Source: Candidatus Dormiibacterota bacterium
Lineage (GTDB): Bacteria > Acidobacteriota > Polarisedimenticolia > Gp22-AA2
Reading direction: 5' to 3'
Assembly: GCA_035635555.1 (NCBI GenBank)
Contig: DASQAT010000048.1
Span: forward strand, 62,001-126,000
Length of the DNA: 64,000 nucleotides
Shown: in pieces, positions 47,523-57,001 of the stretch
Layout: each line of letters opens with the position of its first letter
Numbering within the stretch: the stretch's first letter is position 1
The notes under the pieces: model-generated
Database searches by the model: none
Told to the model about the DNA's origin: nothing
What the model saw: the letters and a program-made list of their open reading frames with translations, nothing else
Made by a program: the position numbers and the translations under genes

Positions 47523-47554
47523 TCTCCTCATTCCTTCCGAGTGAAAGGCCCCTC

Positions 47555-48418
47555 CTGAAACCATCCTGGTCGTTCGGATACCGGGTCGTGGCGCTCTGGG
47601 TGTGCGTCTGGGCGCCCGCGGGAGTGATCGGCTGCGCGGCGCCGGCTCCGAAACCGGCCACCGGGGAGGTGGCGAAGGCGGTGCAGGCGTCGCTCGCGGG
47701 CGGTTCGGAGCGCTTCGACCACGCGACATGGGACAGGCTGCTTCAGGGCGGGACGCGGGATGGCCTGGTCGACTACCGGTTCATGCAGGCGCACCGCGCC
47801 GACCTGGATGCGTACCTGAACGCGATCGGGGGGGCGCACCTCGACCGGCTGGCGGCCGGACAGCTGGAGGCGTTGCTGATCAACGCCTACAACGCGCACA
47901 CGATGCGCGCCATCCTCGACCATCCGGACGTCACGTCGATCAAGAAGATCCCGGGGGTGTGGACCGAGACGAAGCGGCGGGTTGGCGGCTTCGACCTGAC
48001 CCTCGACGACATCGAGCACAGGATTCTGCGGCCGTTCTTCCGCGACCCGCGTCTCCACTTCGCGCTCAACTGCGCCTCGCGCTCCTGCGCGCGGCTGCCG
48101 CCGTGGGCCTACGACGGCGACCGGATCGACATGCAGCTGGAAGACCGGGCGGCGACGTTCCTGGTCGACCCGGACAACGTGTCGTACGAGAAGGAGCGGC
48201 TCGTGGTGTCGAGATACTTCGACTGGTACGGCGGCGATTTCACCGCGCCGGGCTGGAAGGGAGCGGCGCGCACCATCCCGGCCTACATCGCGCGCTACGC
48301 CGTCCTCGACGTCAAGTGGTTCATCCAGGCGTACAAGGCCAGGCCCACGGTGGTCTTCGCGGAGTACGACTGGTCCCTGAACGCCGCCGTGCCGCCCGAT
48401 CCGTCCGTGCGACCGTAG
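47555..48418 (+). CDS. DUF547 lipoprotein
   Basis: This is an exported lipoprotein of about 287 residues. The lipobox is GVIGC-AA. The DUF547 domain begins at FDHATWDRLLQGGTRDGLVDYRFM and includes LLINAYNAHTMRAIL, SIKKIPGVWTE, LHFALNCASRSCARLPPWAYDGDRID and SRYFDWYGGDF. The Cys-containing NCASRSCARLP segment is the family's best-conserved part and may be catalytic. No ATG fits after the tRNA-Glu; CTG 47555 gives a proper signal peptide (MKPSWSFGYRVVALWVCVW) with AAAGG upstream, whereas GTG 47588 gives one without a positive n-region. The function of DUF547 in bacteria is unknown. Confidence 0.82.
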   Translation: MKPSWSFGYRVVALWVCVWAPAGVIGCAAPAPKPATGEVAKAVQASLAGGSERFDHATWDRLLQGGTRDGLVDYRFMQAHRADLDAYLNAIGGAHLDRLAAGQLEALLINAYNAHTMRAILDHPDVTSIKKIPGVWTETKRRVGGFDLTLDDIEHRILRPFFRDPRLHFALNCASRSCARLPPWAYDGDRIDMQLEDRAATFLVDPDNVSYEKERLVVSRYFDWYGGDFTAPGWKGAARTIPAYIARYAVLDVKWFIQAYKARPTVVFAEYDWSLNAAVPPDPSVRP

Positions 48419-49036: not shown

Positions 49037-49750
49037 GTGCGCGGCATCCTGCTGGTGCAGCACGCGGAGAGCGAGGGGCCGGGGCTCCTGGCGCAGGCGC
49101 TGGACGAGCGCCGGCTTCCGATCAGACTCGTGCGCGCCGATCGGGGCGAGAGCGTTCCGCGCGCCGCCGCGGGCGCCGCGGCGGTCATCATCCTCGGCGG
49201 GCCCATGGGGGTGCACGAGGAGGACCGGTTCCCGCACTTGAGGGACGAGATCCTCCTGGCCTCCGACGCGCTGCGGCTCGGAGTGCCGATCCTCGGTGTC
49301 TGCCTCGGCGCGCAGGTCCTTGCGGCGGCCGCGGGGGCGCGGGTGTACCGCGGGCCGGCGCAGGAGATCGGCTGGTTCCCGACCACGCTCACAGCCGCGG
49401 GGCGGGCGGATCCGATCCTCGGTCTTCTCCCCGGCGAGGCGATGGTGTTCCACTGGCACGGCGACACCTTCGACCCGCCGCCGGGCGCGACGCTCCTCGC
49501 GTCGTCGCGTCTCTACGAGCAGCAGGCGTTCCGTCTGTCGCCGCGCGCCTGGGGCGTGCAGTTCCATCCGGAGATCACGGAGGCGATGGTGGACGACTGG
49601 GCGGGGCGCGCGCGCGAGGACGAGGCGGCGTCGTTCGGCGGCGCCGAGGGCGCGGCGAGGATGCGCGACGATGCCCGGCGCCATGTCCCGGCGCTCGCCC
49701 CGCGGGTCGCCGCGCTCGGGCGCGCCTTCCTGGCCCTCAGCGCACCCTGA
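49037..49750 (+). CDS. Class I glutamine amidotransferase (GMP-synthase-like)
   Basis: This 237-residue protein has the triad-type glutaminase fold. The nucleophile Cys is in GVCLGAQVLAAAAGA, and His and Glu are in GVQFHPEITEAM. GGPMGVHEEDRFPHL and FHWHGDTFDPPPGA match the stand-alone amidotransferase group related to GMP synthase and to the YfeJ-like proteins. No synthetase domain is attached or adjacent, so the acceptor of the released ammonia is unknown. The GTG start is close to the divergent FMN reductase gene. Its 3' end overlaps the convergent aldo/keto reductase gene by 14 bases. Confidence 0.9.
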   Translation: MRGILLVQHAESEGPGLLAQALDERRLPIRLVRADRGESVPRAAAGAAAVIILGGPMGVHEEDRFPHLRDEILLASDALRLGVPILGVCLGAQVLAAAAGARVYRGPAQEIGWFPTTLTAAGRADPILGLLPGEAMVFHWHGDTFDPPPGATLLASSRLYEQQAFRLSPRAWGVQFHPEITEAMVDDWAGRAREDEAASFGGAEGAARMRDDARRHVPALAPRVAALGRAFLALSAP

Positions 49751-51278
49751 CGTTCTTCATCTTTCGATAGATCTCGAGCGCGTCCGGCAGGGGAGGCTGC
49801 GACAGGACGGCGAGAGCGTCCTCGACGTAATCCTCCTGGCGCATCCCGACCAGGACACAGGTCACGCCGGGCGTCGAGCACAGGACGGCGAGCGCCTTCT
49901 GCGACAGCGTTGCGCCGCGGCGATCCCGGGGCAGGAGCGGATCGATCGCCTCGGTCACCTTGCCGCTGCGCGAGCGACTGCGGTTGGACGCCTCGCGCGC
50001 GATCCCCCCGAGGAGCGCCTCGAGCGACGGGATGCAGCGCTCCCACCAGGCCTGCCAGCGCGGGCGGACGTCGTCGGGGACGTTCTGCGCCAGCGTCCGG
50101 GCGGTGTGGTTGAGCCGCGGGATGGCGTACTGCTGCTCGATCTGCTTCCAGTGCTCCAGGTCTTCGATCTGATCCTGCATGACCGCCAGCTGGTCGATGA
50201 GGTCGAAGAACGGATCGATGGCGGCGGCCGGGGTTCCCGAAGGCGGCGCGATCGTCGCGCGGTACTCCTCCTCGAGGGTCTTCAGGTCCGCGTGAATCGC
50301 CTTGAGGCTCGGTCCCTTGTCCCGCTCCTGGACCCCGGCCAGGCGGATGAGGCGCTTCCCGACGATGGCGTTGAGCGGGCGATTGATCAAGACCGCCAGG
50401 CTGGCCCCTGCCGCGGCCTCGAGCGGCGTCAGCCGGCGCTCCGGGCCGGTGTTGACCAGGAGCGCACCGCCCGACTCGAACACGTTCATCGGCATCTGCA
50501 CGACGCGGAAATGGTGCTCCTTGCCGCCCGCCTCCTCGGCGGCCTTCAGGAAGTAGCTCAGCGACGTGGCCTCGGGATCGTCGGCGGCGGCGACGAGCGA
50601 ATTCGACGACACGCCGTAGCAGCCGATCTCGCCGCGCGTCACGGCCTTTTCGAAGAAGGCGAACGCCTCCTGGACGCGGCGGTAGAACTCGGCGCGCAGC
50701 ACGTCGAGGTCGCGGCCGCGGCCGTGCTTCTTGGCGTCGGTGAGGAAATACTCCGGATTGTGCAGCAGGCAGACGTCCAGGGTCGCGAGACCGAGCCGGT
50801 CGAGGGACCGCGCCAGCTGGTCCTTCAGGAATTCCGGATGGATGCAATGCCAGCACCACTCCTCGACCTTGACCATCTCGGGGAAGGGGAAGCCGGCCTT
50901 TTCGCGCTCGGTCGCCAGACGCATGTTCTCGCCCTGCACGTAGCCGATCTTCGACACGACCACGACCGCCTCGCGCGGCACGCGGCCGTTCCGCCCGGCT
51001 TCCTTGAGCACGCGCCCGACCAGCCGTTCGCTGCCGCCGTCCATGTAGTTCGTCGAGGTGTCGATGAGATTGCAGCCGGAGGCGAGGGCCGCCTCGAGCG
51101 CCGCGCGGTGCTCCGGCGTGGCGTCGTCCACGCGGTAGCAGCCGAAGCCGAGCCGGCTGACGTAGAGCCCCGTGGCGCCGAGCGGGACGTGGCCGTGCGG
51201 CGCGTGCGCCGGAAACCTCGCCAGGTGGTCGCGCGTTCCCCCGGGGGTGGCCCGGCCGGAGAACGGAGAGTCGCTCAC
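49737..51278 (-). CDS. Aldo/keto reductase family oxidoreductase, extended
   Basis: This 513-residue AKR-fold protein is about 200 residues longer than typical. The TIM-barrel start is LGFGCYRVDD. The catalytic residues fit LIDTSTNYMDGGSE (Asp and Tyr), VVVVSKIGY (Lys) and DVCLLHNPE (His). The extra length lies in the middle and C-terminal part (roughly 300-450, rich in helices such as IHADLKTLEEEYRATI and WQAWWERCIPSLEALLGG). The final LSQKALAVLCSTPGVTCVLVGMR is AKR-like. Its GTG start overlaps the upstream DUF523 stop as GTGA. It is the last gene of the seven-gene operon. Confidence 0.87.
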   Translation of the reverse strand: MSDSPFSGRATPGGTRDHLARFPAHAPHGHVPLGATGLYVSRLGFGCYRVDDATPEHRAALEAALASGCNLIDTSTNYMDGGSERLVGRVLKEAGRNGRVPREAVVVVSKIGYVQGENMRLATEREKAGFPFPEMVKVEEWCWHCIHPEFLKDQLARSLDRLGLATLDVCLLHNPEYFLTDAKKHGRGRDLDVLRAEFYRRVQEAFAFFEKAVTRGEIGCYGVSSNSLVAAADDPEATSLSYFLKAAEEAGGKEHHFRVVQMPMNVFESGGALLVNTGPERRLTPLEAAAGASLAVLINRPLNAIVGKRLIRLAGVQERDKGPSLKAIHADLKTLEEEYRATIAPPSGTPAAAIDPFFDLIDQLAVMQDQIEDLEHWKQIEQQYAIPRLNHTARTLAQNVPDDVRPRWQAWWERCIPSLEALLGGIAREASNRSRSRSGKVTEAIDPLLPRDRRGATLSQKALAVLCSTPGVTCVLVGMRQEDYVEDALAVLSQPPLPDALEIYRKMKNVRVR

Positions 51279-51862
51279 GCGCGCCCCCCGGAGGCGCGGG
51301 TGCGGTCCGCCCCTCCGGCGAGACGGTCGAGCCTTCGCCCGTAGGCGAGGACCCGCCGCACGAACCGCTCGCGCCGCCTCGTGTCGTGCAGGGCGTCCTC
51401 CTCCTCGACCGGCAGGCCCGGGAACCGCGTCGTCAAGGCGCGGGCGAACACTCCGGAGCCGTCGCGCGCCGGCGGCGCGCCGGGCCGGCCGGTGCTGTGC
51501 ACCGGCACGCTCCGCAGGCCGCAGGTCGGCGAGCGGCTCTTCAGGATGTAGCCGCAGAGATCCAGAAGGTCCGGCCGATCGAGGCGGCGGCGCGACCAGG
51601 CGCGCATCCTCGAGGTGATGTCGCGTCGGGCGCGCTCGAAGACGAGACGCGGCCGGCGCGGATCCCCTTCCAGACGGAGCGTCTCGCGCGGCACGCCGAG
51701 CCCCAGCTCGACCTCCGGGCAGACGGGGATCCATTCGAACAGGCGGCCGAGGGGTAGGGCGACGCGGCGGTCGAGCTTGTGCCCGCCGTCGTATCGCACC
51801 CTCTGGCCGAGCAGGCAGGCGCTGATGCCGACGCGGAGGCGCGGAAGGCTGCGCGCGGTCAT
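51275..51862 (-). CDS. DUF523 family protein
   Basis: This 195-residue cysteine-rich soluble protein opens with GISACLLGQRVRYDGGHK, the DUF523 signature. CPEVELGLGVPRETLRLEGDP and GYILKSRSPTCGLRSV follow. The conserved Cys residues could hold a metal or a redox disulfide. DUF523 proteins are often linked to thiouridine/DNA-repair-like genes but have no established activity. The start overlaps the amidohydrolase stop as ATGA, and its own stop overlaps the AKR start. Confidence 0.9.
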   Translation of the reverse strand: MTARSLPRLRVGISACLLGQRVRYDGGHKLDRRVALPLGRLFEWIPVCPEVELGLGVPRETLRLEGDPRRPRLVFERARRDITSRMRAWSRRRLDRPDLLDLCGYILKSRSPTCGLRSVPVHSTGRPGAPPARDGSGVFARALTTRFPGLPVEEEDALHDTRRRERFVRRVLAYGRRLDRLAGGADRTRASGGRA

Positions 51863-53178
51863 CTCCCGAGGTCGATGACCCGGCCGCCCTGGACGACGGC
51901 GGCCGGCTTCCTGAGGATCACGACGTCCTTGGCCGGGTCCCCCTCGAACGCGACGAGATCGGCGTACTTCCCCGGCTCGAGCGTCCCGAGGTCCTTCGAC
52001 CGCCCCAGAAGATCGGCCGCGCTCCGGGTCGCGGCGACGATCGCCTCCATCGGCGTCATGCCGAACTGGACCATCAGCTCGAACTCGTGGGCGTTCTGTC
52101 CGTGCGGAGTGACGGCGCTGTCCGTGCCGAAGGCGATCTTCACGCCCGCGGCGTGCGCCTTGCGGAACGACTGCTGCATCATCGGCCAGACGGCCAGCCC
52201 CTTGGCGATGGAGTAGTCGGGAAGCCGGCCGTTCTTCGCGCTGGTGTACACCGACTCACCCGCCATGAGCGTGGGGACGAGGTACGTGCCGTGTTCCTTC
52301 ATCATCTTGATCGCCTCGTCGTCGAGGATGGAGCCGTGTTCGATCGAGTCGATCCCCGCCAGGACCGCGGCCTTGATGCCGGCGGTGCCGTGGGCGTGCG
52401 CCGCCACCTTGCGTCCGAGGGCGTGCGCCTCTCCGATGATGGCGCGCAGCTCGTCGTCGGAGAACTGCCGCGCCCCCAGCTCGTCGCCCGAGGACAGGAC
52501 GCCGCCGGTGGCGGCGATCTTGATCAGGTCGGCGCCGTACTTGACCTGGTAGCGCACGGCGGCGCGGCACTCGTCGGGGGAGTTGCAGACGCCGGATTCG
52601 ATCCCTCCGTGTCCGGCGATCTCCAGACCGGGCCGGAAGGCGTTGAGACTGTCGGCGTGTCCGCCGGTGATGGTGATGATCTCGCGCGCGGTCAGGATGC
52701 GCGGGCCCTCGATGAGCCCGAGATCGACGGCGCGGCGGAGCGCGACGCTTGTGCCGTCCGAGTCACCGACGTTGCGCACGGTCGTGAATCCGGCGCGCAG
52801 CGTCGCCAGGGCGTTGACGGTGCCGAGGATAGCCTCGTCGGCCGTCGTGCGCAGGACCGGCCGCCACTTCCAGTCGGCATCCACGAGGAACGTCAGGTGA
52901 TCGTGGCAGTCGATGAAGCCGGGGAGGACGGTGCGTCCGGACAGATCCAGATCGCGCGCTCCCTCCGGGCGCGCCAGCCCCTTCTGCGTGTCGATCGCCT
53001 CGATCCGCTCCCCCTTGACCAGGATCGCCATGTCACGCCGGGGCGGCCCGCCGTTTCCGTCGATCAGGAGGCCGACCCTGACGTAGAGCGGCTTCGGCGC
53101 GTCGGCCGCGGCCGCCACCGTGGCGACAAGGGCCGCCGCCGCGCAGAACCCCGTGATCCGGGCGGGAAATCCGCGCAA
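51859..53178 (-). CDS. Exported amidohydrolase (imidazolonepropionase/Xaa-Pro dipeptidase-like)
   Basis: This 439-residue metal-dependent hydrolase has an N-terminal signal peptide (hydrophobic residues 9-24, cleavage near AAADA). The amidohydrolase TIM barrel shows HxH in DCHDHL, the carboxylated Lys candidate in LIKIAATGG, His in KVAAHAHG, His in SIEHGS and Asp in FGTDSAVTPHG. This arrangement matches exported amidohydrolases active on cyclic imides or Xaa-Pro peptides. The start is TTG 53178, one base after the cytochrome stop, so translation is coupled. The substrate is not predictable. Confidence 0.9.
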   Translation of the reverse strand: MRGFPARITGFCAAAALVATVAAAADAPKPLYVRVGLLIDGNGGPPRRDMAILVKGERIEAIDTQKGLARPEGARDLDLSGRTVLPGFIDCHDHLTFLVDADWKWRPVLRTTADEAILGTVNALATLRAGFTTVRNVGDSDGTSVALRRAVDLGLIEGPRILTAREIITITGGHADSLNAFRPGLEIAGHGGIESGVCNSPDECRAAVRYQVKYGADLIKIAATGGVLSSGDELGARQFSDDELRAIIGEAHALGRKVAAHAHGTAGIKAAVLAGIDSIEHGSILDDEAIKMMKEHGTYLVPTLMAGESVYTSAKNGRLPDYSIAKGLAVWPMMQQSFRKAHAAGVKIAFGTDSAVTPHGQNAHEFELMVQFGMTPMEAIVAATRSAADLLGRSKDLGTLEPGKYADLVAFEGDPAKDVVILRKPAAVVQGGRVIDLGR

Positions 53179-53179
53179 T

Positions 53180-53527
53180 CTACGAGCCCTTCTTGGTGAG
53201 CGTCCCGAGGTAGACCACGAGCGCGTCCAGGTCCTCGGCGGACAGGGAGGAGTAGGCCTTCATCTTCGAATCGGCCTTCACCGATTTGGGATTGACGATG
53301 TACTTCTTCAGCTCCTCGGCCGTCATCTTGCCGCCGACGTCGTCGAGGGGGGTCTTCGGGTTCCCCTTGCCGGCGATCGAATGGCACATGCTGCAGTGCT
53401 GCGCCGCGTACACCTGCTGCCCCTTGCCCGCTTTCGCCGCATCGGGCTTCGCGGCCTCCTCGGCCCGCAACCCGGCGACTCCGAGACCGACGGACAGCGC
53501 GACGGCGATGGCCAGACTCCGTGTCAT
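53180..53527 (-). CDS. Small periplasmic c-type cytochrome
   Basis: This 115-residue protein has a signal peptide (MTRSLAIAVALSVGLGVAG, cleavage near LRA-EE). One haem-binding motif, CSMCH, is present, and the methionine ligand is probably in SKMKAYSSLS. LSAEDLDALVVYLGTL is the terminal class I cytochrome helix. ATG 53527 has AGGAGG seven bases upstream. It is encoded 32 bases after an alpha/beta hydrolase and just before an amidohydrolase, an unusual context for an electron carrier. Its redox partner is unknown. Confidence 0.92.
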   Translation of the reverse strand: MTRSLAIAVALSVGLGVAGLRAEEAAKPDAAKAGKGQQVYAAQHCSMCHSIAGKGNPKTPLDDVGGKMTAEELKKYIVNPKSVKADSKMKAYSSLSAEDLDALVVYLGTLTKKGS

Positions 53528-53559
53528 CCTCGACCCTCCTTGGTGTGGTGGACCGGTCG

Positions 53560-54249
53560 CTACGATATCACCCCTGCGGGGTCGTCTCCAACGGGCGGCG
53601 TCATCCGCCCGGCGGAGCGCATCTCGTCGGGGACCGCCGCGGCGACACACCGGGCCAGCTCGTCGAGATGCCCGGCGAAGTTGTGCGCCGCCCCTTTCAC
53701 CACGACAACCCGCGCCCCCCCCGGCACGACAGCCGCCAGCGCCATCACCTGGAGGAGCGGGCCGAAGGCGTCTCCGTCCCCCTGGATGAGCGTCAGGGGT
53801 TTACGGCAGTCGCGCAGGAAGCCGAAACCGACGAGATTGACCGGGATGCCGATGCCGATCAGCGCGGGCGCCCGCGGGTCGCGGCAGCCGACGCTGAGGG
53901 CGACGAAGGATCCGAAGGAGTACCCGGCGACCAGGAGGCGCCGGCCGGGAAAGAGCCGCGCCAGGTGATCCAGGACCGAGCGCAGGTCGTCCTGCTCGCC
54001 GCGCCCGCCGTCGTGCGTGCCTCCGCTTCCGCCGACCCCGCGGAAATTGAAACGCAGGACGGGGATGCCGGCGTCGACGATTGCCTCGGCGGCGGCGTGC
54101 ACGACCTTGTTGTGCATCGTGCCGCCGAACAGGGGATGGGGGTGGCAGACGACCGCGGCCGAGGGGGTGTCGGCGGCGTCTGGCCGCTTCAGCATGCATT
54201 CGATGCGCCCCGCCGGACCCCGCAGGAAGAAAGTCTCGATCCGGCTCAT
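53560..54249 (-). CDS. Alpha/beta hydrolase
   Basis: This 229-residue cytosolic serine hydrolase has the family opening AAVVCHPHPLFGGTMHNKVVHAAAEA. The nucleophile is in GYSFGSFVAL and the catalytic His is in GAAHNFAGHLDEL; the acid is probably in LIQGDGDAFG. This is the CHPHPxxGG group, mostly annotated as dienelactone-hydrolase-like or uncharacterised esterases. RFNFRGVGGSGG forms the oxyanion loop. Its ATG overlaps the TVP38 stop as ATGA. The substrate is unknown. Confidence 0.88.
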   Translation of the reverse strand: MSRIETFFLRGPAGRIECMLKRPDAADTPSAAVVCHPHPLFGGTMHNKVVHAAAEAIVDAGIPVLRFNFRGVGGSGGTHDGGRGEQDDLRSVLDHLARLFPGRRLLVAGYSFGSFVALSVGCRDPRAPALIGIGIPVNLVGFGFLRDCRKPLTLIQGDGDAFGPLLQVMALAAVVPGGARVVVVKGAAHNFAGHLDELARCVAAAVPDEMRSAGRMTPPVGDDPAGVIS

Positions 54250-54947
54250 GCGCCCGCCCGCGCGCGCAGCGTCCGCCGCGCCAGCCGCGTGACGTAGACC
54301 GTAACGGCGAGCGTGGCGATCAGGCCGATGGTCCAGGCGGCGTACTCGGCGGGGGTACGCGCGGTCCGGCCGGCGGCCGCCTGCGCCACCGCGCGGCCGG
54401 CAAAGCCCAGGTAGACGTACAGCACGGTGCCCGGCATCATGCCGATCCACGAGGCCAGGACGTACGGGCCGAGGCGAACGCGCGTCAGGCCGTACAGATA
54501 GTTGAGCAGGTTATACGGAAACACCGGGCTCAGGCGGGTGAGCAGGACGATCGTCCATCCCTCCCGACCGACCGCCCCGTCGATCGCTGCGAATCGCGGG
54601 TCGCGCGCCGCCCAGCGCTCGACGCGATCGCGCGCCAGGTAGCGGGCGACCAGGAATGCGGCCGTGGCCCCGAGGGTCGATCCGGCCGACACGGCGACGA
54701 ACCCCCAGCCCAGACCATAGAGGGCGCCCGCCCCGATCGTCAGCGCCGAACCGGGGACGAAGAGGACGGCTGCCAGGGCGTAGACGATCGCGAACAGACC
54801 GATCCCCCAGAGTCCGAGTCGGGAGAGCAGCGCGTTCAGGCCGGCGAGCCAGGAGGCCACCGGGAGGAAACGCAGGGCCACGGCCAGCGCCGCCAGTGCC
54901 GCGAGACCCCCGAGGAGCCGCGCGCGGCCGCTTTGCGCCGCGCTCAC
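54246..54947 (-). CDS. TVP38/TMEM64 family membrane protein
   Basis: This 233-residue DedA-superfamily protein has about six helices. The central SNARE-associated domain shows LFVPGSALTIGAGALYGLGWGFVAV, GATAAFLVARYLARD and RLSPVFPYNLLNYLYGLTRV, with the F/P-rich re-entrant loops typical of the family. DedA-superfamily members are lipid scramblases or flippases, for instance for undecaprenyl phosphate. Similar proteins occur next to, or fused with, mercuric-reductase-like flavoproteins, as here. It overlaps both neighbours by four bases. Confidence 0.9.
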   Translation of the reverse strand: MSAAQSGRARLLGGLAALAALAVALRFLPVASWLAGLNALLSRLGLWGIGLFAIVYALAAVLFVPGSALTIGAGALYGLGWGFVAVSAGSTLGATAAFLVARYLARDRVERWAARDPRFAAIDGAVGREGWTIVLLTRLSPVFPYNLLNYLYGLTRVRLGPYVLASWIGMMPGTVLYVYLGFAGRAVAQAAAGRTARTPAEYAAWTIGLIATLAVTVYVTRLARRTLRARAGA

Positions 54948-56431
54948 AGACCCCGCCGCTGCCAGGCGTAGAGCCGCGAGAAGATCGCGCGCGCTCCGGG
55001 GGTGAGTTTCGTCCGCATGAAAGCGTCGGCGGTGCGCTGCACGGCCTGCGACAGCGTCGGGTAGACGTGGATCAGGGACGACAGCGACTGCAGACCGATC
55101 CCCTGCCTCATCGCCAGGGCCAGTTCATGGATCAGCTCGCCGGCCCCGGCGCCGACCACCGTCGCCCCGAGGATCGTGCCGCGCCCGCGCGCGGCGATCA
55201 CCTTGACGAACCCTTCCTCCTCGCTCTCGAGGATGGCGCGATCCAGGTCCGAATAGGGGAAGTGGTGCACGTCGAACCTCACGTCGGTCTGCGCCGCGTC
55301 GGTCTCGTTCAGGCCGACGCGCGCCACCTCCGGCTCGGTGAAGGTGGTCCACGGCACGACCCGCTGGTCGGCGCGGGCGCGCAGGAGCCCCTTAAAGGGG
55401 GACAGGAGGATGTTGCGCACGACGATGCGCGCGTGGTGCTCGGCGACATGCGTGAAATGCAACGACCCGCAGACGTCCCCCGCGGCGTAGATGGTCTTGC
55501 GGCTCGTCTGGAGATAGGCGTTCACCGTGACCCCCCGGCCGGTCGAGGCCACCCGGGCCCGGTCCAGGCCGAGCCCCTCGACGTTCGGCGTCCGCCCCGC
55601 GGCGATCAGGATCGTGTCGGCCTCGATCTCGAGCGGGTCATCCGGCCCGCCGGTCCCGCCCTCGCGGCGCACCTTCACGCGGTGCGGCGCGGCGCGGCCG
55701 GGGACGACCGACTCGACCCGGCCGCGGAGGAGAAGGCGAACGCCGTCCTCCGCCATCCTGGCCTGCACCAGCGCCGCGACGTCCGCGTCCTCGCGGTGCA
55801 GCACGTGCGGCCCCCGGTCGACCAGGGTCACTCTGGCTCCGAGCCGGACCATCGCCTGCGCCAGCTCGCAGCCGACCGGACCGCCCCCCACCACCAGGAG
55901 GTGGCCGGGCGGCGTCTCGCGCTCGAAGATCGTTTCGTTCGTCTCGAACCCCGCCTCCTTCAGGCCGGGGACATCGGGCACGACGGCCCGCCCCCCGGTC
56001 GCGAGAACGATGTTCCGGGCGCGCAGCAGCGTGCCATCCACCCGGACGGAATGCTCGGACTCGAGGGACGCATCGCCCGGGAAGACATCCACTCCCAGCC
56101 GTTCGAAGCGCTCGACCGAGTCGTTCGGCTCGAGGCGGGCCCGCAGCGCCTTCACCCGCAGCACAACGCGGCCGTAATCGACGAGCGGTTTCACCGGATC
56201 GAGCGCGTAGAGATCGGCGCGGCGCATCAGCGCGGCGACGCGAGACGAGCGGATGAGCGCCTTGCTCGGCACGCACCCGAAATTCAGGCAGTCGCCGCCC
56301 ATTCGGTTGCGTTCGATCAGCGCCACGCGGCCGCCCAGGCCGGCGGTTCCGGCCGCCGTGACCAGTCCGGCCGTGCCGGCGCCGATGACCACGACGTTGT
56401 AGACGCCTTCTCCCTTGCCCGTGGAGCCCAT
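54944..56431 (-). CDS. Mercuric-reductase/dihydrolipoamide-dehydrogenase-like FAD oxidoreductase
   Basis: This 495-residue pyridine-nucleotide disulfide oxidoreductase shows, in order: the FAD-binding VVVIGAGTAGLVTAAG, the redox-active disulfide MGGDCLNFGCVPSKAL, the NAD(P)-binding VVGGGPVGCELAQAMVRLG, the second FAD motif IYAAGDVCG and the dimerisation domain. The C-terminus (HVYPTLSQAVQRTADAF) carries the conserved His-x-Tyr-Pro-Thr. It lacks the MerA metal-binding N-domain and C-terminal Cys pair, so it is unlikely to be a true mercuric reductase. ATG 56431 has GGGAGA upstream. It heads a seven-gene operon. Confidence 0.9.
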   Translation of the reverse strand: MGSTGKGEGVYNVVVIGAGTAGLVTAAGTAGLGGRVALIERNRMGGDCLNFGCVPSKALIRSSRVAALMRRADLYALDPVKPLVDYGRVVLRVKALRARLEPNDSVERFERLGVDVFPGDASLESEHSVRVDGTLLRARNIVLATGGRAVVPDVPGLKEAGFETNETIFERETPPGHLLVVGGGPVGCELAQAMVRLGARVTLVDRGPHVLHREDADVAALVQARMAEDGVRLLLRGRVESVVPGRAAPHRVKVRREGGTGGPDDPLEIEADTILIAAGRTPNVEGLGLDRARVASTGRGVTVNAYLQTSRKTIYAAGDVCGSLHFTHVAEHHARIVVRNILLSPFKGLLRARADQRVVPWTTFTEPEVARVGLNETDAAQTDVRFDVHHFPYSDLDRAILESEEEGFVKVIAARGRGTILGATVVGAGAGELIHELALAMRQGIGLQSLSSLIHVYPTLSQAVQRTADAFMRTKLTPGARAIFSRLYAWQRRGL

Positions 56432-56503
56432 CAGGATCTCCCGCGTCGCGGCCGAAGTCGGGATAATATGCCGTTTCTCATTCGCGGGGGAGGAGCCTTG
56501 CCG
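56432..56503. promoter_or_regulatory. Divergent promoter region of the flavin reductase and the seven-gene operon
   Basis: This 72-base region has one AT-rich core, GGATAATATG (56461-56470). It offers GATAAT on the plus strand and TATTAT on the minus strand as -10 candidates. No good -35 was found for either. The ribosome site GGAGGAG (about 56489-56494) belongs to the flavin reductase. Confidence 0.45.
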
Positions 56504-57001
56504 GTGCCCACCGACCAGTTCAAGAGCGCCATGCGGCGCTGGGGGAGCGGCGTGTCGATCCTCACGACCCGGCGCGAAGGGGGAATCCTCGGGATCACCG
56601 TCAGCTCCTTCTGCTCTGTGTCCCTGAACCCGCCCCTGGTTCTCGCCTGCATCGACAAGAAGGCCCGCAGTCATGTTTCAATCGAGAAGGACGCCTCGTT
56701 CGCCATCAACGTCCTGAAGGACAGCCAGGAGCGGCTCTCCGAGCTCGCCGCCGGTCACCTCGGAGAGCGCGGCAACTGGCTCGAAGACGTGCCGCTCCGG
56801 AAGGCGGAGACGGGGGCCCCCATCCTCACCGACTGCCTGGCCTGGTTCGACTGCAGACTCGAAGCGGCCCACGACGGAGGGGACCACACGATCTTCGTCG
56901 GCCGCGTCGAGGCCGCCGGCCACTCCCAGGGGCGTCCGCTCCTGTATTACGACGGCGCCTACCACCGTCTCTCCCACCAGCGCCCGTCCCGCCGGAGCTG
57001 A
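56504..57001 (+). CDS. Flavin reductase (DIM6/NTAB type)
   Basis: This flavin reductase-like protein has about 165 residues. It begins MPTDQFKSAMRRWGSGVSILTTRREGGILGITVSSFCSVSLNPPLVLACIDKKARSH, the split-barrel FMN-binding signature. SFAINVLKDSQERLSE and HTIFVGRVEAAGHSQGRPLLYYDGAYHRL complete the fold. GTG 56504 is favoured over ATG 56468 because GGAGGAG then lies at the right distance and a GATAAT box lies upstream. It probably supplies reduced flavin to a monooxygenase not encoded here. Confidence 0.9.
   Translation: MPTDQFKSAMRRWGSGVSILTTRREGGILGITVSSFCSVSLNPPLVLACIDKKARSHVSIEKDASFAINVLKDSQERLSELAAGHLGERGNWLEDVPLRKAETGAPILTDCLAWFDCRLEAAHDGGDHTIFVGRVEAAGHSQGRPLLYYDGAYHRLSHQRPSRRS

What the first reader, a model, noticed from the sequence alone, without database searches (positions are those of the whole stretch)
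49737..56431. Seven-gene redox/hydrolase operon with tight translational coupling
A MerA-like flavoprotein, TVP38, alpha/beta hydrolase, cytochrome c, exported amidohydrolase, DUF523 and an extended AKR are joined by four 4-base overlaps and gaps of 1 and 32 bases. The mixture of cytosolic, membrane and periplasmic enzymes is not a standard pathway and suggests uptake, breakdown or detoxification of an unknown compound.
Basis: partly seen in the sequence, partly recalled or inferred. Interest (0 to 1): 0.5.

Follow-up and report, generated by a model that had tools for sequence, protein, structure and literature searches.

The report
Patchwork redox-gene cluster in an acidobacterium
Seven tightly packed genes really are there, but relatives show that they are a patchwork of smaller gene groups rather than one dedicated breakdown or detoxification pathway.

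Summary
In detail: seven minus-strand genes, 56431 to 49737, four 4-base overlaps, gaps of 32 and 1. Family names hold, except that the flavoprotein is no mercuric reductase (TIGR02053 358.6 bits, cut-off 454.45).

The complete set is seen in 1 of 8 genomes of its family (G004 may also be complete; its contigs end inside). It is a composite. Module A, flavoprotein plus TVP38, is old: within 300 bases in 13 of 20 acidobacterial genomes holding both, with the 4-base GTG overlap kept in the sister family. Elsewhere it neighbours DUF547, DUF255, TIGR04283 and once ArsS. Module B (hydrolase, cytochrome c, optional amidohydrolase, optional DUF523, AKR) is family-specific and lies apart from module A in one same-genus genome. 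In the sister family the genes are scattered.

Side result: the long AKR is half of a DUF255-AKR fusion in 64 of 75 named loci outside group 22, mostly Nitrospirota and Methylomirabilota; the window's AKR is nearer to these than to its sister family's.

Verdict: an ordinary composite operon, with one unexpected lead; low to moderate interest.

The parts
54944..56431 (-). Module A: FAD-dependent pyridine nucleotide-disulfide oxidoreductase (PRK06370-like), CxxxxC redox pair Cys48/Cys53; not a mercuric reductase
   Evidence: Pfam 200.4 bits; NF004991 575.2 of 620, TIGR02053 358.6 of 454.45; cysteines at 48, 53, 188, 321 only
54246..54947 (-). Module A: TVP38-type (VTT/DedA superfamily) membrane protein, GTG start, 4-base overlap with the flavoprotein
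   Evidence: VTT_dom 101.6 bits; overlap conserved in G000, G002, G003, G007 and G008
53560..54249 (-). Module B: alpha/beta hydrolase with GYSFG motif
   Evidence: Hydrolase_4 38.6, Abhydrolase_11 37.5 bits; motif
53180..53527 (-). Module B: one-haem cytochrome c (CSMCH), signal-like N-terminus by eye
   Evidence: Cytochrom_C 45.6 bits; motif
51859..53178 (-). Module B, optional: amidohydrolase near Xaa-Pro dipeptidase / Cc2672, signal-like N-terminus by eye
   Evidence: NF051886 444.7 of 500; PDB 3mtw 321.8 bits; HDH 92, HAH 261, GTDS 351; in the cluster in 3 of 8 family genomes
51275..51862 (-). Module B, optional: DUF523, TudS-like desulfidase
   Evidence: PF04463 128.0 of 34.7; TudS 6z92 29 bits; residues
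49737..51278 (-). Module B: long aldo/keto reductase with helical stretch 325-448
   Evidence: Aldo_ket_red 88.6 bits; model pLDDT 84.4; VIA-align Z 28.9, rmsd 2.8, 285 aligned to 7utf_B
47540..48418 (+). Neighbour, outside the finding: DUF547 protein; its homologues sit next to TVP38 in the sister family
   Evidence: PF04784 77.4 bits
56468..57001 (+). Neighbour, divergent: flavin reductase, kept beside the cluster or its flavoprotein in 8 of 8 family genomes
   Evidence: Flavin_Reduct 148.6 bits

Best explanation
The finding is a lineage-specific composite operon. Module A, a FAD disulfide oxidoreductase coupled to a TVP38-type membrane protein, is an old acidobacterial pair. Module B (hydrolase, cytochrome c, optional amidohydrolase, optional TudS-like desulfidase, long AKR) belongs to one family of Acidobacteria group 22 kin and lies behind module A. 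If they share a transcript, the parts most likely do separate redox and salvage jobs: NAD(P)H-driven reduction of a thiol or disulfide at the inner membrane (flavoprotein with TVP38), removal of sulfur from thiolated pyrimidine nucleotides on a [4Fe-4S] cluster (DUF523), carbonyl reduction (AKR), electron transfer outside the cytoplasm (cytochrome c), peptide or amide hydrolysis there (amidohydrolase). Shown: gene order, families, catalytic residues, conservation pattern. Inferred: co-transcription, how the modules came together, substrates and all activities.
For: Complete set seen in 1 of 8 family genomes; module B content varies (AKR 8, hydrolase 7, cytochrome 7, DUF523 6, amidohydrolase 3 of 8); in G001 flavoprotein-TVP38 and hydrolase-cytochrome-DUF523-AKR are on two contigs with other genes at the break. 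In G005 the hydrolase lies directly beside the flavin reductase without module A. Scattered in the sister family, where the AKR follows ubiE in 4 of 4. Flavoprotein and TVP38 within 300 bases in 13 of 20 genomes that hold both. Catalytic residues: flavoprotein CxxxxC, DUF523 C16, C48, E50, S111, C114, AKR D73, Y78, K110, H173.
Against: G004 may hold all seven (its contigs end in the flavoprotein and at the cytochrome), so the full set may be less rare than 1 of 8. In 7 of the 20 genomes with both, flavoprotein and TVP38 are apart. Cytochrome c and amidohydrolase pair up in two sister-family genomes too (40 to 47% identity), so module B has at least one older part. Draft assemblies hide parts of several loci. 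No expression data.
Confidence: 0.65

Rival explanations
1. Plain regional synteny without function: neighbours stay together in close relatives only because too little time has passed, and the overlaps reflect compact packing.
For: Flanking genes that do not belong to the operon are kept in place about as well as the cluster: flavin reductase 8 of 8, DUF47-PiT 7, FMN reductase 7, DUF547 6, amidotransferase 5.
Against: Cluster proteins differ by 16 to 47% between family members, and parts were gained, lost or moved while others stayed; flavoprotein-TVP38 and cytochrome-amidohydrolase pairs outlive the family.
Confidence: 0.2
2. One reading: one dedicated pathway in which an exported amidohydrolase, a cytochrome and cytosolic enzymes take up and break down or detoxify one compound.
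For: Seven genes, one strand, four overlaps; exported and cytosolic enzymes mixed; 6 of 7 also in G003 and G007.
Against: Amidohydrolase in 3 of 8 and DUF523 in 6 of 8 family genomes; module A absent from the locus in G005 and G006; scattered in 4 sister-family genomes; in 75 named loci with the AKR outside group 22 no hydrolase, cytochrome, amidohydrolase or DUF523 relative within the fetched flank, a flavoprotein relative in 3 and TVP38 in 2.
Confidence: 0.1
3. A remnant of an ArsS/TIGR04283 (arsenosugar-annotated) gene neighbourhood: module A and DUF547 are what is left, and module B was inserted between TVP38 and DUF547.
For: In G008 the order is DUF255, TIGR04283 glycosyltransferase, flavoprotein, TVP38, DUF547; G010, G009 and G011 keep glycosyltransferase, TVP38, DUF547; the glycosyltransferase passes the TIGR04283 cut-off in the 2 proteins tested; ArsS lies about 1.5 kb from TVP38 in G030. 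In the window DUF547 is two genes past the AKR.
Against: No ArsS over the cut-off in G000, G002 and G003; DUF547 in the window is on the other strand; the glycosyltransferase was not sought in the window genome; in G044 and G041 the pair lies far from any ArsS or without one over the cut-off.
Confidence: 0.05

Closest known systems
COG0398 DedA (TVP38) fused to pyridine nucleotide-disulfide oxidoreductase domains PF07992/PF02852 (PMC10127716, passages)
   Same: Same two domain types; here as two overlapping genes.
   Different: Not fused; assignment of the window's TVP38 to COG0398 is inferred, not tested.
DUF255 (Thioredox_DsbH, YyaL/SPATA20-type) proteins fused to a long AKR in Nitrospirota and Methylomirabilota
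   Same: The AKR half is the same long AKR, 46 to 56% identical to the window's.
   Different: In the window the AKR is a separate gene; the genome's DUF255 matches lie on other contigs.
TudS desulfidase (DUF523), 4-thio-UMP recycling (PMC10611767, passages)
   Same: Three cluster cysteines, glutamate and one of two serines kept.
   Different: Second serine (Ser103) is threonine here; weak overall similarity (29 bits).
Mercuric reductase MerA
   Same: Fold and CxxxxC motif.
   Different: Below the TIGR02053 cut-off; no cysteine after residue 321.
Xaa-Pro dipeptidase / Cc2672 exported amidohydrolases
   Same: 444.7 bits to NF051886, 321.8 bits to PDB 3mtw.
   Different: Below the NF051886 cut-off of 500; substrate untested.
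ArsS/TIGR04283 neighbourhoods annotated as arsenosugar biosynthesis
   Same: Flavoprotein, TVP38 and DUF547 relatives sit in such neighbourhoods in other acidobacteria.
   Different: No ArsS over the cut-off in the window genome.

Membership tests
Conserved seven-gene operon | Same gene set together in relatives | tested here: not met
   Seen complete in 1 of 8 family genomes (G004 undecided), 0 of 4 sister-family genomes
Flavoprotein-TVP38 pair | The two genes adjacent across families | tested here: met
   13 of 20 genomes with both have them within 300 bases; 7 do not
Mercuric reductase (TIGR02053) | Score over curated cut-off | tested here: not met
   358.6 of 454.45 bits
Mercuric reductase | C-terminal cysteine pair (recalled from the MerA literature) | tested here: not met
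   Cysteines only at 48, 53, 188, 321 of 495
TudS / DUF523 | PF04463 over cut-off | tested here: met
   128.0 of 34.7 bits
TudS | Three cluster cysteines and catalytic glutamate | tested here: met
   C16, C48, C114, E50 in the places of Cys10, Cys43, Cys104, Glu45
TudS | Two catalytic serines | tested here: not met
   Ser111 for Ser101, but Thr113 for Ser103
Aldo/keto reductase superfamily | Pfam match, catalytic tetrad, barrel fold | tested here: met
   88.6 of 24 bits; D73, Y78, K110, H173 kept; Z 28.9, rmsd 2.8, 285 aligned to 7utf_B
Xaa-Pro dipeptidase (NF051886) | Score over curated cut-off | tested here: not met
   444.7 of 500 bits
COG0398 DedA | Subfamily assignment within VTT/DedA | not tested
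   Only VTT_dom was scanned
ArsS-associated (arsenosugar) neighbourhood | ArsS (TIGR04167) in the genome over cut-off | tested here: not met
   Best in G000 49.6 of 300 bits; 20 of 60 genomes are over it

The most novel reading that the evidence does not exclude
The long AKR is the working partner of DUF255 (YyaL/SPATA20-type thioredoxin-like proteins of unknown function): fused to it in Nitrospirota and Methylomirabilota, separate from it in Acidobacteria group 22 kin, where it sits next to a disulfide oxidoreductase-TVP38 pair that is itself a neighbour of DUF255 in other acidobacteria (G008, G044). AKR, DUF255, flavoprotein and TVP38 would then be parts of one undescribed redox system, and the window's operon one of its rearranged forms.
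Probability: 0.15. Interest if true: 0.55.

Novelty: new variant of a known kind. Interest (0 to 1): 0.3.

Why it matters
In itself it mainly warns that tight coupling in one genome does not mean one pathway. If the novel case is true, the AKR-DUF255 fusion ties a reductase activity to DUF255, which Pfam still lists as of unknown function and which reaches from bacteria to the human protein SPATA20 (recalled); it could be tested in cultured Nitrospira.

Tried and rejected
A shared CxxC metal or redox site in the AKR: Cys142-Trp-His-Cys145 is invariant in the 11 rows, but the pattern CxHCxHP is in only 14 of 80 named loci; dropped as a family feature. In the same 80 loci the D-Y, K and H patterns are in 78 each; the misses are two truncated or broken group 22 frames (L081, L091) for D-Y and K, and L089 and L111 for the LLHNP pattern.

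Promoters and terminators: 0 sigma-70-like sites (0.2 expected) and 1 terminator-like site on the other strand (2.4 expected) in 49500-56700; uninformative.

Mercury resistance: rejected. Arsenosugar pathway in the window genome: no ArsS over the cut-off. The FMN reductase at 48422-49003 hits ArsH at only 40.9 of 292.25 bits; not used.

A known fold for the AKR's helical stretch was not sought by itself; no claim is made. Neighbour clustering around the AKR was swamped by shadow reading frames of high-G+C DNA and replaced by frame tracing; one search stopped on a script error after two of six loci. A taxonomy look-up found no such name.

Papers: searches. No paper of that library holds both 'aldo keto reductase' and 'DUF255', or 'DUF255', 'fusion' and 'aldo'; most subscription papers are missing, so this is weak evidence of absence. 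Only PMC10611767 and PMC10127716 were opened, and only as passages; other papers were seen as listings.

The report was sent once before in a faulty layout and returned; this version adds the G004 caveat, mends identity ranges and counts, and lowers no finding.
Full report
Observation. The flavoprotein keeps a CxxxxC pair (Cys48, Cys53) but is no mercuric reductase: TIGR02053 scores 358.6 against a cut-off of 454.45, and there is no cysteine after residue 321 of 495. DUF523 keeps the three cluster cysteines and the glutamate described for TudS and one of its two serines; the other is threonine. The AKR has the catalytic tetrad D73, Y78, K110, H173 and an AKR fold, with a helical stretch at about 325-448 inside it.

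Where it is. The window lies in an unnamed draft genome of 4.28 Mb. Contigs of its relatives have the same lengths as named records: G003:C109 and QHXX01000030.1 both 38972 bases, G004:C175 and QHXY01000031.1 both 11816, G005:C109 and QHXZ01000040.1 both 25516 (titles 'Acidobacteria bacterium isolate gp22'), G002:C66 and JACOUZ010000222.1 both 6249 (title 'Acidobacteria bacterium'). I infer a group 22 acidobacterium or close kin.

Family. Each of the seven proteins was searched in 60 genomes (21 for the cytochrome) and mapped with flanking genes on 20 fetched stretches. The family holds 8 of these genomes, G000 to G007. G000: all seven. G003 and G007: six, without the amidohydrolase. G001: flavoprotein-TVP38 on one contig beside flavin reductase, DUF47 and PiT; hydrolase-cytochrome-DUF523-AKR on another, with other genes at the break. 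G002: flavoprotein, TVP38, hydrolase, AKR across two contig ends, with no cytochrome, amidohydrolase or DUF523 between hydrolase and AKR. G004: cytochrome (cut), amidohydrolase, DUF523, AKR (frame broken) on a 4.6-kb contig, flavoprotein cut at another contig's edge, a second partial AKR on a third; TVP38 and hydrolase were not found, perhaps because of these ends, so G004 may have had all seven. G005: hydrolase, cytochrome, amidohydrolase, AKR beside the flavin reductase, no flavoprotein or TVP38 match. G006: hydrolase, a gap of about 1 kb, cytochrome, DUF523, AKR; its only flavoprotein-TVP38 pair is elsewhere and less alike (46 and 49%). In place in k of 8: AKR 8, hydrolase 7, cytochrome 7, DUF523 6, flavoprotein 6, TVP38 5, amidohydrolase 3. 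Flanks: flavin reductase 8, DUF47-PiT 7, FMN reductase 7, DUF547 6, amidotransferase 5. Cluster proteins are 53 to 84% identical to the window's.

Beyond the family. In the sister family (G008 to G011) the genes are scattered. The AKR directly follows a ubiE-type methyltransferase in 4 of 4 (Ubie_methyltran 198.7 to 214.5 bits; TIGR01934 over its cut-off in the 2 tested), with a 4-base overlap in 3 of 4 by the frame ends. Cytochrome c and an amidohydrolase are neighbours in G009 and G010 (40 to 47% identity). Flavoprotein and TVP38 are coupled in G008 with the same 4-base GTG overlap. In the phylum sample 25 of 60 genomes have the flavoprotein (E <= 1e-80) and 29 of 60 TVP38 (E <= 1e-3); 20 have both, 13 of them within 300 bases, 7 apart. 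The flavoprotein-TVP38 pair is therefore a conserved unit and the seven-gene set is not.

A second neighbourhood of module A. G008: DUF255, TIGR04283 glycosyltransferase, flavoprotein, TVP38, DUF547. G010: the same without the flavoprotein. G009 and G011: glycosyltransferase, TVP38, DUF547. G019 and G022: TVP38, DUF547. G044: TVP38, flavoprotein, DUF255. G013: glycosyltransferase-like, DUF547, flavoprotein. G030: flavoprotein, TVP38, then ArsS about 1.5 kb on. Five stretches with the pair or its flavoprotein (G026, G054, G041, G006, G020) show none of these partners within the fetched DNA, so the association is common, not general. The glycosyltransferase passes the TIGR04283 cut-off in the 2 proteins tested. 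The window's DUF547 gene lies at 47540-48418, two genes past the AKR and on the other strand. The window genome has no ArsS over the cut-off. One paper, on another topic by its listing, answered the search on these names.

The AKR elsewhere. A scan of named genomes with the AKR alignment confirmed 337 stretches, of which the best 80 were kept. Five are group 22 kin. Of the other 75, 64 encode the AKR in one open frame behind a full-length DUF255 part, 8 are cut at a contig start, and 3 (L083, L115, L123) have a broken or partial frame with DUF255 sequence directly upstream. Four such frames were scanned: three gave PF03190 at 258 to 260 bits plus Aldo_ket_red, the fourth (L115) the AKR alone. 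Titles are mostly Nitrospira/Nitrospirae and Methylomirabilota/NC10, with single others. In a tree of 38 AKRs (27 of the 75, chosen by me, including L089 and the three broken ones; 7 of the family, two of them partial; 4 of the sister family) the family's AKRs fall with the fusion AKRs and apart from the sister family on a branch of 100/100 support; their exact place among the fusions is open. The tree is unrooted, so a split of a fusion and transfer of an unfused gene both remain possible. DUF255 itself is in 21 of 21 genomes searched; in the window genome its matches are on contigs C17, C18, C26 and C39, not beside the AKR.

How it probably works. Best reading: two modules, perhaps in one transcript, with different redox and salvage roles; all activities are inferred from families. 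The idea of uptake and breakdown of one compound is weakened by the optional amidohydrolase and DUF523, the separation in G001, the lack of module A in G005 and G006, and the scattering in the sister family.

Limits. Draft genomes; tblastn with thresholds; one genome per species, mostly unnamed; 60 genomes of the phylum; no background for overlaps; signal peptides judged by eye.

Noticed in passing
L094:6895-10575, L141:6874-10593, L084:6826-10518 and other loci: A DUF255 (YyaL/SPATA20-type) and long aldo/keto reductase fusion of about 1230 residues, in 64 of 75 named loci outside group 22.
   Followed up: partly
L074:3126-9354 (G008), L180:1438-5928 (G010): DUF255, TIGR04283 glycosyltransferase, (flavoprotein), TVP38 and DUF547 in a row on one strand in the sister family.
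   Followed up: partly
L068:6191-8508, L069:5259-7651, L072:1796-4152, L073:6208-8572: In 4 of 4 sister-family genomes the long AKR directly follows ubiE, a quinone-biosynthesis methyltransferase gene.
   Followed up: partly
L063:1535-3626 and L064:10628-11815: In G004 the cluster's AKR frame is broken while a second, partial AKR lies on another contig: duplication with decay, or an assembly fault.
   Followed up: no
49737-49750: The end of the AKR gene overlaps the convergent glutamine-amidotransferase gene by 14 bases.
   Followed up: no
L070:3643-5715, L071:3574-5312: Cytochrome c and an exported-type amidohydrolase are neighbours in two sister-family genomes too.
   Followed up: no
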